Positions 3,252 to 4,150 of a DNA stretch of 41,603 nt are shown piece after piece. Position numbers and translations under genes: made by a program. Every line of letters begins with the position of its first letter. Position 1 is the first letter of the stretch. This DNA is from Candidatus Bipolaricaulis sp. (GTDB lineage: Bacteria > Bipolaricaulota > Bipolaricaulia > UBA7950 > UBA9294). The DNA lies in assembly GCA_028713635.1 (NCBI GenBank), contig JAQTNX010000003.1, positions 6,099-47,701 of the forward strand, in the 5' to 3' direction. The notes beneath the pieces were generated by a model, which saw only the letters and a program-made list of their open reading frames with translations, searched no databases and had not been told where the DNA came from.

Positions 3252-3422
3252 GGCGGCAGGTTGTCGTCTGCCGGCGATCCTGGAGCTTCGGAGTTCGTCA
3301 AGCGAACTCCGAAGCAAGCGGATGACGAGACTGCAGTTCCGCCCACAAGCGCGGAACTGCCGAGCGACTCGATCTAGCACGAGTTCGGCGTAGCCGAACT
3401 CGCGAGCAACCCGAAGGGTTGC
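3252..3422 (+). repeat. Hairpin cluster I between tRNA-Gly and tRNA-Arg
   Basis: The spacer is almost wholly made of consecutive perfect stem-loops. CTTCGGAGTTCG (3286-3297) pairs with CGAACTCCGAAG (3303-3314). GCAGTTCCGC (3333-3342) pairs with GCGGAACTGC (3351-3360). CGAGTTCGGC (3380-3389), loop GTA, pairs with GCCGAACTCG (3393-3402). GCAACCC (3406-3412), loop GAA, pairs with GGGTTGC (3416-3422). A weaker CGGCAG/CTGCCG stem precedes them near 3254. None is followed by a T-run, so these are not ordinary terminators. The last pair (GTA-loop stem, then GAA-loop stem) matches the architecture of the insertion at 39951-39991. Confidence 0.85.
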
Positions 3423-3427
3423 CCCCT

Positions 3428-3500
3428 GCGCCCGTAGCTCAGGGGATAGAGCAACGGCCTTCTAAGCCGTGGGCCGGAGGTTCGATTCCTCCCGGGCGCG
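3428..3500 (+). tRNA. tRNA-Arg (TCT)
   Basis: Acceptor arms GCGCCCG/CGGGCGC, D-arm GCTC/GAGC, anticodon stem ACGGC/GCCGT with loop CTTCTAA (anticodon TCT), T-arm GGAGG/CCTCC with loop TTCGATT, discriminator G3500. It starts 5 bases after the GCAACCC-GAA-GGGTTGC hairpin; tRNA-Arg (TCG) has the same hairpin in the same place. Confidence 0.95.
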
Positions 3501-3507
3501 CATCGAT

Positions 3508-3581
3508 GGGGAGCGTGGCGCAATGGCTAGCGCACTGGGTTGTGGTCCCAGGGGTTGCGGGTTCGAGCCCCGTCGCTCCTC
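3508..3581 (+). tRNA. tRNA-His (GTG)
   Basis: Anticodon stem CTGGG/CCCAG with loop TTGTGGT (anticodon GTG), D-arm GCGC/GCGC and T-loop TTCGAGC. The acceptor carries the extra 5' G (G3508) that can pair with C3581 at position 73, the hallmark of tRNA-His. C-C-A follows directly at 3582-3584. Confidence 0.95.
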
Positions 3582-3646
3582 CCAGAGAATGGGCACGTAG
3601 TCTGTGACCCGTAGCAAGTGGGACGCCCCACACAGGTCAATGAAGA

Positions 3647-3779
3647 GGAGTTCGCACAGCGAACTCCTTGGCTGTGATCGGATGAAGAAGGAGTCTGGGT
3701 GGCAGACTCCCGAGCGGTCGGATCAAGGAGAGGAGTTCTGCGCGGAAGCGCGGAACTCCCGAGCAACCCGAAGGGTTGC
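3647..3779 (+). repeat. Hairpin cluster II between tRNA-His and tRNA-Arg (TCG)
   Basis: Four consecutive stem-loops. GGAGTTCGC (3647-3655), loop ACA, pairs with GCGAACTCC (3659-3667). GGAGTCTG (3690-3697) pairs with CAGACTCC (3703-3710). GGAGTTCTGCGC (3732-3743), loop GGAA, pairs with GCGCGGAACTCC (3748-3759). GCAACCC (3763-3769), loop GAA, pairs with GGGTTGC (3773-3779). Stems starting GGAGT and ending ACTCC recur here and in clusters I and III with different inner sequence, so pairing is preserved while sequence drifts. No T-tracts follow. Confidence 0.85.
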
Positions 3780-3784
3780 CCCAT

Positions 3785-3858
3785 GCGCCCGTAGCTCAAC
3801 TGGATAGAGCATCGGTCTTCGGAACCGGGGGTTGGGGGTTCAAGTCCCTCCGGGCGTA
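3785..3858 (+). tRNA. tRNA-Arg (TCG)
   Basis: Acceptor arms GCGCCCG/CGGGCGT, D-arm GCTC/GAGC, anticodon stem TCGGT/ACCGG with loop CTTCGGA (anticodon TCG), T-loop TTCAAGT, discriminator A3858. Its last 19 bases recur exactly at 3982-4000. Last tRNA of the array; a strong terminator follows at once. Confidence 0.93.
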
Positions 3859-3895
3859 AAGCGAGCGAGGGGTCCATAGGGCCCCTCGCTCGCTT
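3859..3895 (+). terminator. Strong stem-loop terminator after the tRNA array
   Basis: A perfect 14-bp stem, AAGCGAGCGAGGGG (3859-3872) with CCCCTCGCTCGCTT (3882-3895), on an 8-base loop. It begins directly after the discriminator of tRNA-Arg (TCG) and is followed by a short TCTGTCT stretch. It probably ends the tRNA transcript and may set the 3' processing point. Confidence 0.75.
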
Positions 3896-3922
3896 TCTGT
3901 CTGGAGTCACCTTTGATCCTCT

Positions 3923-3973
3923 GGAGTTCGCGACCTGTCGAACGGCGAACTCCCGAGCCGCACGAAGTGCGGC
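3923..3973 (+). repeat. Hairpin cluster III downstream of the tRNA terminator
   Basis: GGAGTTCGC (3923-3931) pairs with GCGAACTCC (3945-3953). It is followed after CGA by GCCGCAC (3957-3963), loop GAA, and GTGCGGC (3967-3973). The second stem occupies the place of the GCAACCC-GAA-GGGTTGC hairpin in clusters I and II but has a different stem sequence, while the GAA loop and pairing are kept. Confidence 0.8.
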
Positions 3974-3981
3974 CAGGGGTC

Positions 3982-4000
3982 TCAAGTCCCTCCGGGCGTA
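3982..4000 (+). repeat. Duplicated 3' end of tRNA-Arg (TCG)
   Basis: TCAAGTCCCTCCGGGCGTA is an exact copy of bases 3840-3858, the T-loop, T-stem and acceptor 3' strand of tRNA-Arg (TCG). It is again followed directly by a GCGAGCGAGGGG terminator stem. The rest of the tRNA is absent. This could be an att-type direct repeat left by tRNA-targeted integration, or the remains of a duplicated tRNA plus terminator. Confidence 0.85.
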
Positions 4001-4002
4001 AG

Positions 4003-4036
4003 GCGAGCGAGGGGGCACTCCTGCCCCCTCGCTCGC
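4003..4036 (+). terminator. Second terminator-like stem, paralog of the one at 3859
   Basis: Perfect 15-bp stem GCGAGCGAGGGGGCA (4003-4017) with TGCCCCCTCGCTCGC (4022-4036), 4-base loop. The GCGAGCGAGGGG half matches the first terminator. It sits directly after the copied tRNA tail, so tail and terminator were duplicated together. Confidence 0.65.
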
Positions 4037-4064
4037 TTCACGTTCGAAGCCACCTTGACCTCCC

Positions 4065-4150
4065 GAGTTCGCAACCTCTCAAGCAGCGGACTCCGTCGCC
4101 ACCCCATGGGTGGCCGCCGTCCGCACAGCGGCCGTTCGCTTCGGACGGCC
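4065..4150 (+). repeat. Hairpin cluster IV next to the decayed transposase
   Basis: GAGTTCGC (4065-4072) pairs with GCGGACTC (4086-4093) with one G-T pair. GCCACCC (4098-4104), loop CAT, pairs with GGGTGGC (4108-4114). GGCCGTTCG (4130-4138), loop CTT, pairs with CGGACGGCC (4142-4150) with one G-T pair. This continues the tRNA-spacer hairpins as far as the transposase remnant. Confidence 0.7.

What the first reader, a model, noticed from the sequence alone, without database searches (positions are those of the whole stretch)
3252..4150. A dense array of perfect mini-hairpins fills the spacers of a tRNA cluster
At least a dozen stem-loops lie in about 900 bp around three tRNA genes. Many share the outer frame GGAGT...ACTCC or CGAGC, but the inner stem sequence varies while pairing is kept (GCAACCC/GGGTTGC twice, GCCGCAC/GTGCGGC once, all with loop GAA in the same relative place). 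This suggests selection or a mechanism acting on hairpin structure, not sequence. The GAA- and GTA-capped stems resemble the very stable C-GNA-G DNA mini-hairpins, so single-stranded DNA forms or RNA processing are both plausible. They are not ordinary terminators (no T-tracts) and are followed by functional-looking tRNAs.
Basis: partly seen in the sequence, partly recalled or inferred. Interest (0 to 1): 0.82.

Follow-up and report, generated by a model that had tools for sequence, protein, structure and literature searches.

The report
Double-hairpin DNA repeats crowding tRNA genes
Between and behind the tRNA genes of this uncultured bacterium (candidate phylum Bipolaricaulota) sit many copies of a small DNA element made of two back-to-back hairpins; their letters change while the pairing is kept, they occur elsewhere in the genome and inside a broken gene, and they behave like a previously undescribed, probably mobile, family of structure-defined repeats.

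Summary
Around five tRNA genes (3036-3859), and up to about 4175, lie some 15 hairpins, far beyond chance. Stem letters differ between copies but pair: 12 of 16 pairs show double changes in 92 copies, and hairpin 2 starts at the predicted base in 47 of 82 anchored copies against 2.1 expected. Copies occur genome-wide (25), in 14 of 33 genomes of its family but none of 67 others in the phylum, and in other phyla. Near tRNAs, hairpin 2 lies 1-5 bases from the gene end, or abuts a copy of the local tRNA's 3' end. Two copies sit in and behind an IS110 transposase gene whose relatives lack them. G-T pairs are no commoner than other mismatches, pointing to pairing kept in DNA, not RNA. Best reading: a non-autonomous mobile double-hairpin element. 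The mobilising enzyme is unknown; RAYT is not supported.

The parts
3036..3110 (+). tRNA-Pro (CGG)
   Evidence: ARAGORN and Rfam RF00005
3118..3189 (+). tRNA-Gly (TCC)
3285..3315 (+). hairpin 1 alone: GCTTCGGAGTTCG tcaag CGAACTCCGAAGC, 13 perfect pairs
   Evidence: I6
3333..3360 (+). hairpin 1 variant GCAGTTCCGC..GCGGAACTGC followed by linker CGA; hairpin 2 not clear
   Evidence: sequence; fold
3380..3423 (+). complete element: H1 3380-3402, linker CGA 3403-3405, H2 GCAACCC-GAA-GGGTTGC 3406-3422, C 3423; ends 4 bases before tRNA-Arg(TCT)
3428..3501 (+). tRNA-Arg (TCT)
3509..3584 (+). tRNA-His (GTG)
3647..3667 (+). hairpin 1 alone, GGAGTTCGC aca GCGAACTCC
3690..3713 (+). hairpin 1 variant GGAGTCTG..CAGACTCC plus linker CGA; stem pairs changed on both sides
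3732..3780 (+). complete element: H1 3732-3759, CGA, H2 GCAACCC-GAA-GGGTTGC 3763-3779, C 3780; ends 3 bases before tRNA-Arg(TCG)
3784..3859 (+). tRNA-Arg (TCG)
3860..3894 (+). long perfect hairpin directly behind the tRNA, terminator-like by position (no clear T-tract)
   Evidence: (I3)
3923..3974 (+). complete element: H1 3923-3953, CGA, H2 GCCGCAC-GAA-GTGCGGC 3957-3973, C 3974
   Evidence: 70 bits
3976..4001 (+). copy of the 3' end (T-arm and acceptor 3' strand) of tRNA-Arg(TCG); last 18 bases identical to the gene
4003..4036 (+). second long hairpin, copy of the 3860-3894 hairpin with different inner letters
   Evidence: (D4, I4)
4064..4115 (+). partly decayed element (H1 imperfect, H2 GCCACCC-CAT-GGGTGGC)
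   Evidence: (40.9 bits)
4151..4172 (+). decayed second copy of the tRNA-Arg 3' end
   Evidence: read by eye; not scored by a tool

Best explanation
The hairpins are copies of a roughly 43-70 base, non-coding, probably mobile double-hairpin element: H1 (GGAG..CTCC) - C-N-A - H2 (GC..GC) - C. Shown: the composite structure, strong covariation, dispersal within a genome, presence in several phyla, hairpin 2 flush with tRNA ends, arrays containing copies of the local tRNA 3' end, and copies in and behind a transposase gene whose relatives lack them. Inferred: the element spreads as folded single-stranded DNA acted on in trans by an unidentified enzyme that reads the fold and the unpaired C, A and C rather than the stem letters. 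Pairing is kept because only well-paired copies are copied on, or because replication template-switching re-perfects the arms. It accumulates at the edges of tRNA genes because insertions there are tolerated or targeted, and recombination between repeats builds tandem units that carry the tRNA 3' end along.
For: Two-hairpin scan without a sequence rule: the gap between neighbouring hairpins peaks sharply at 3 bases, linker C-N-A, and 52 of 52 such copies are followed by C. Hairpin 2 found at the exact predicted base in 47 of 82 anchored copies versus 2.1 (maximum 7) in shuffles, next base C in 47 of 47. Covariation: 204 double changes versus 43 in shuffles, 12 of 16 pairs; sliding the partner by one column destroys it. 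Genome copies: 25, of which 14 lie within 500 bases of a tRNA gene, where about 0.5 is expected from 42 tRNAs in 2.3 Mb. Occupied and empty sites: two elements in and behind an IS110-family transposase gene (Pfam PF02371, PF01548) versus three uninterrupted relatives; an array present in G000 but absent beside the conserved flank in G001 and G011. Both orientations to tRNA transcription. G-T pairs 2.0-2.3% against 7.7% in tRNA stems of the same genomes; in inner H1 pairs G-T (7 cells) is no commoner than other mismatches (17). Same element with tandem arrays in a Thermoanaerobaculia genome (25 copies) and an Acidimicrobiia genome (14).
Against: No enzyme is identified: 0 model hits around the Y1 transposase genes tested and no correlation with their presence. 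No target-site duplication was seen. The left edge of the clearest insertion is not clean (about 12 host bases replaced), and the empty copies are from another genus. Position next to tRNA genes is conserved among relatives, which selection for a function would also explain. The model was seeded with this family's sequences and alignment A7 was fitted to the model, which inflates the pair counts.
Confidence: 0.6

Rival explanations
1. RNA-level signals: the hairpins are transcribed with the tRNA operons and act as processing sites, leader or trailer insulators, or stabilisers of the precursor.
For: All window copies are co-directional with the tRNAs; hairpin 2 sits 1-5 bases from the RNase P site or from the tRNA 3' end; position conserved in several genera; strong RNA folding.
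Against: Antisense orientation behind tRNA-Ser in every genome checked; copies without tRNA (C123, C66, C116, C67) and in other phyla away from tRNAs; G-T pairs as rare as other mismatches; most tRNA genes of the genome have none.
Confidence: 0.2
2. The units are scars of integrative elements that use tRNA 3' ends as attachment sites; the hairpins are part of the attachment region.
For: Each unit ends with a copy of the local tRNA's T-arm and acceptor strand, mostly 16-18 of 18 bases, often at +118 to +137, in Arg, Leu and Gln tRNAs; units also stand away from tRNAs behind a conserved 27-base sequence.
Against: No integrase seen among the ORFs between two such units in G002 (read by eye); elements without any tRNA copy exist in the tRNA spacers, in intergenic arrays and in other phyla; the hairpins are not sequence-conserved as attachment sites usually are.
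Confidence: 0.12
3. Not mobile: local palindromes re-perfected by replication template switching and multiplied by tandem duplication, with no function.
For: Perfect arms with very few wobble pairs; tandem arrays with regular period.
Against: Dispersed copies with a fixed C-N-A linker and trailing C at unrelated loci and in other phyla need copying from place to place or transfer; copies in a gene whose relatives lack them.
Confidence: 0.1
4. REP-type palindromes moved by a RAYT (Y1, HUH) transposase.
For: Small dispersed palindromes, strand-specific extra bases, four Y1_Tnp genes in the genome.
Against: No model hit near Y1_Tnp genes in 110 kb; G002 has 13 model hits and no Y1_Tnp, genus g8 has Y1_Tnp and no element; no constant GTAG before the palindrome; stem sequence not conserved.
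Confidence: 0.05

Closest known systems
Double-hairpin elements (DHE) of Allomyces mitochondrial DNA and repetitive hairpin-forming elements (RHE) of sponge mitochondria (Paquin 2000, cited in PMC2800124; PMC2800124)
   Same: Small non-coding units of one or two hairpins, intergenic and sometimes inside genes, in tandem, complementary substitutions between copies, mobility inferred from uneven copy numbers, no adaptive function known.
   Different: Those are in mitochondria; this one is bacterial, has a C-N-A linker and trailing C, and sits flush with tRNA ends. No common descent was tested or is claimed.
GC-rich palindromes flanking tRNA genes of Neurospora mitochondria (Yin 1981, known here only as a title cited in PMC2800124)
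   Same: Palindromes flanking tRNA genes.
   Different: Their sequence is highly conserved according to the title; here the sequence varies and the fold is kept. The paper itself was not read.
REP / REPIN elements with TnpA-REP (RAYT) (PMC3116915, PMC8266576)
   Same: Dispersed small bacterial palindromes, intergenic, with flanking unpaired bases.
   Different: No constant GTAG, two hairpins instead of one, stem letters not conserved, no association with a RAYT gene.
E. coli tyrT repeats / rtT RNA (from memory)
   Same: Tandem units downstream of a tRNA gene, each holding a copy of the tRNA 3' end.
   Different: No match to any Rfam family but tRNA; here the units carry the double hairpin and occur behind several different tRNAs.
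Intrinsic terminators
   Same: The hairpins at 3860-3894 and 4003-4036 stand where a terminator would.
   Different: H1 and H2 have no T-tract and lie also upstream of tRNAs; the scan finds no terminator.

Membership tests
REP element (RAYT-mobilised) | palindrome preceded by a conserved tetranucleotide, mostly GTAG | tested here: not met
   linker is C-N-A (TNG on the other strand) with a variable middle base
REP element (RAYT-mobilised) | RAYT gene in the genome, often flanked by REPs | tested here: not met
   Y1_Tnp present in some carriers but not in G002; no element beside any Y1_Tnp gene tested
Double-hairpin / repetitive hairpin-forming elements | one or two hairpins, dispersed, intergenic and in genes | tested here: met
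Double-hairpin / repetitive hairpin-forming elements | complementary substitutions between copies | tested here: met
Double-hairpin / repetitive hairpin-forming elements | common descent with the mitochondrial elements | not tested
   the shared features are structural only; 'works like', not 'is a'
rtT RNA (tyrT repeats) | match to the Rfam family | tested here: not met
   gathering-threshold scan of the window gives tRNA only
Intrinsic terminator | GC-rich hairpin followed by a T run | tested here: not met
   0 found at 2900-4300
Integrative element at a tRNA attachment site | direct repeat of the tRNA 3' end | tested here: met
Integrative element at a tRNA attachment site | integrase gene within the element | tested here: inconclusive
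   no recombinase recognised by eye among ORFs between two units in G002; no domain search was made there, and units of about 120-140 bp are too small to code for one

The most novel reading that the evidence does not exclude
A new class of bacterial mobile element that is recognised by shape: a folded double hairpin with unpaired C, A and C as nearly the only fixed letters outside the outer frame pairs, inserted in register with tRNA gene ends and able to capture and multiply tRNA 3' ends, spread over several phyla and moved by an enzyme not yet known.
Probability: 0.35. Interest if true: 0.82.

Novelty: new variant of a known kind. Interest (0 to 1): 0.62.

Why it matters
It would be a bacterial counterpart of the mitochondrial double-hairpin elements, with structure rather than sequence as the conserved trait, and it makes a testable question of how such elements are copied. 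The tRNA arrays give natural, repeated examples of tRNA 3' ends being duplicated next to their genes. Sequence-based repeat finders would miss most copies, since the stems differ.

Tried and rejected
RAYT link: searched for Y1_Tnp genes and scanned their flanks with the model; nothing. Known RNA family: none but tRNA. A first G-T count with loose acceptance (258 'elements') was contaminated by chance hairpins and is not used for the elements; the frame-anchored count replaces it, and only the tRNA control is kept. Two first seed alignments mis-registered the 10-pair stems and were dropped. An early note of mine counts 18 of 25 hits at tRNAs; the recount is 14 within 500 bases of a tRNA gene plus 3 beside tRNA 3'-end copies. 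The scattered Streptomyces and Kribbella hits have no good hairpin 2 and look like chance or coding matches. Literature: no earlier description found in eight searches; most subscription papers are not held, so this is weak evidence of novelty.

Full report
Observation. The region holds five tRNA genes in one direction, Pro, Gly, Arg-TCT, His and Arg-TCG, and its spacers are packed with hairpins. GAGTTC..GAACTC palindromes occur five times in 41.6 kb, all here, against 0.11 expected. The Gly-Arg spacer, the His-Arg spacer and the stretch behind Arg-TCG fold with z-scores of -5.5, -6.9 and -8.8, and no shuffle did as well.

The unit. The hairpins are not independent. Reading the copies side by side gives one composite: hairpin 1 with the frame GGAG..CTCC, a linker C-N-A, hairpin 2 with outer GC..GC, then C. 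To test this without using the pairing of hairpin 2, I anchored on the letters ACTCC-CNA-GC with GGAGT upstream: a perfect hairpin 2 of six or more pairs starts exactly after the linker in 47 of 82 distinct copies, against a mean of 2.1 and a maximum of 7 in 200 shuffles, and the base after it is C in 47 of 47. A scan for any two neighbouring perfect hairpins in the loci, with no sequence rule, gives a gap that peaks at 3 bases with linkers CTA, CGA, CAA, CCA (or their complements), and C after hairpin 2 in 52 of 52. The loci were chosen for GGAGTTC, so the frame itself is not tested by this; the linker, the position of hairpin 2 and the last C mostly are. Some copies have quite other hairpin-1 letters (GGAGAACCGC..GCGGTTCTCC).

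Covariation. A covariance model of 52 positions (R1) finds 92 copies at E below 1e-5 in loci of the family. On that alignment 97.9% of cells pair, 12 of 16 pairs show changes on both sides, and 204 cells are doubly changed against 43 in shuffles; sliding the partner by one column drops pairing to 40-51%. The alignment was fitted to the structure, which favours it, so searches are the cleaner tests.

DNA or RNA. Under selection on RNA, G-U pairs are accepted as intermediates. With the register fixed by the GGAGT/ACTCC frame alone, the inner hairpin-1 pairs are 300 Watson-Crick, 7 G-T and 17 other mismatches; inner hairpin-2 pairs are 192 Watson-Crick and 4 G-T, though there only well-paired copies were counted. 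G-T is thus about 2% of pairs, against 7.7% in acceptor and T stems of tRNAs from the same genomes, and is not preferred over other mismatches. I take this as evidence that pairing is kept in DNA or by copying, not as RNA. It is an inference from a modest sample.

Where they are. The window's genome (2.3 Mb, 213 contigs, 88% complete) has 25 model hits; 14 lie within 500 bases of a tRNA gene and three more beside tRNA 3'-end copies, where 42 tRNAs would give about 0.5. In the better assembled relative G011, 11 of 27 lie near a tRNA. In 100 genomes of the phylum, hits occur in 14 of 33 genomes of the same family and in none of 67 from other families. Named relatives show that this is candidate phylum Bipolaricaulota. 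The same unit, with hairpin 2 and the last C not demanded by the search, is in a Thermoanaerobaculia genome (25 copies, tandem arrays), an Acidimicrobiia genome (14), and in fewer copies in Armatimonadetes, Conexibacter, Solirubrobacteraceae and Treponema genomes, there not near tRNAs in the loci examined.

Register with tRNA genes. In all 12 cases where hairpin 2 faces a tRNA, it lies 1-5 bases from the gene end: at the 5' end of Arg tRNAs in sense, and at the 3' end of Ser tRNAs in antisense. The same spacer in different genomes keeps the arrangement with unrelated stem letters: before Arg-TCG, GCAACCC in G000, GCTGCGCC in G002, GCCGAACGGCTAC in G011. Within genus g10 the letters are similar (G011 and G103).

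Copies of tRNA 3' ends. Behind Arg-TCG, Arg-CCG, Arg-CCT, Arg-GCG, Leu-CAG and Gln genes the order is tRNA, long hairpin, H1, CNA, H2, C, then a copy of that tRNA's T-arm and acceptor strand (for Gln only the last part), sometimes repeated. The last 18 bases match 16-18 times of 18 in most, often 118-137 bases after the gene, against a shuffled best of about 11. Species-specific letters are shared between gene and copy (CAAATCC in G011, AAGTCC in G000), so copies are young or are kept alike. In several copies one base is added in the T-loop (TTACGA). Window copy: 3976-4001, identical in its last 18 bases. Similar units stand apart from tRNA genes, some behind a conserved 27-base sequence. How the tRNA end came to be copied is not resolved; tandem duplication by recombination and attachment-site use both fit.

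Mobility. In G000 contig C66 an IS110-family transposase gene (PF02371 at 3.9e-22, PF01548) is interrupted near its 3' end by one element (L105:1501-1543) and has a second just behind (1593-1639). Three relatives in G011 read through both places; a fourth G011 sequence carries the second element at the same place. The first insertion replaces about 12 host bases, so it is not a clean cut-in, and no target duplication is seen. An array at C116 is absent next to the conserved flank in G001 and G011. A subfamily of hairpin-2 sequence recurs at about 80-93% identity at many unrelated places in G002 and G011.

Mechanism. Y1 (RAYT-like) transposases are the obvious candidates for moving palindromes, and the genome has four, but no element lies near any Y1 gene tested, and presence does not correlate: G002 has elements and no Y1 gene, genus g8 the reverse. 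I therefore leave the enzyme open. The most likely mechanism is copying of the folded single strand by an enzyme acting in trans that reads shape and the three unpaired bases, with replication template switching helping to keep the arms perfect; shown are the dispersal, the fold and the occupied gene, inferred are the enzyme and the strand.

Known kinds. The nearest are double-hairpin and repetitive hairpin-forming elements of mitochondria, for which complementary substitutions, tandem arrangement, genic and intergenic positions and lack of known function are described (PMC2800124, which also cites palindromes flanking Neurospora tRNA genes), and bacterial REP elements (PMC3116915, PMC8266576), whose defining GTAG and RAYT link are not met here. 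No prior description of this element was found, within an open-access library only. I rate it a new variant of a known kind.

Noticed in passing
window 4215-5396 (-): Mutator-type (IS256-like) transposase (PF00872), probably incomplete, directly behind the hairpin array; a similar IS end stands behind the array of G011 (L078 about 1600-1690).
   Followed up: partly
L105:437-1639 (G000 contig C66): IS110-family transposase gene with two double-hairpin elements in and behind its 3' end; some IS110-family elements target palindromic repeats (memory), so the association may be more than chance.
   Followed up: partly
L123:2400 and 5383, L154:3299 and 7373: A 27-base sequence GAGTTCAAGAGTAGTCCCGTAGAGGGTA, nearly identical between genera, stands at several unrelated places, mostly directly before a unit of long hairpin, H1, H2 and tRNA-Arg 3' copy.
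   Followed up: partly
L069 (G002), about 1060-1080: In the orthologous cluster of G002 the 5' part of tRNA-Arg(TCT) and the whole hairpin spacer before it are missing; deletion or assembly collapse.
   Followed up: no
L247 (G016) 200-760: Another genus of the family has different hairpins in the same tRNA spacers (GTTTGAGC..GCTCAAAC), with a CAA linker and GCAACGC hairpin 2 kept before tRNA-Arg(CCG).
   Followed up: no
L129, L135 (Treponema MAG): Dense arrays of similar and other hairpins (GGAGTTTTGC..GCAAAACTCC) in a Treponema metagenome-assembled genome.
   Followed up: no
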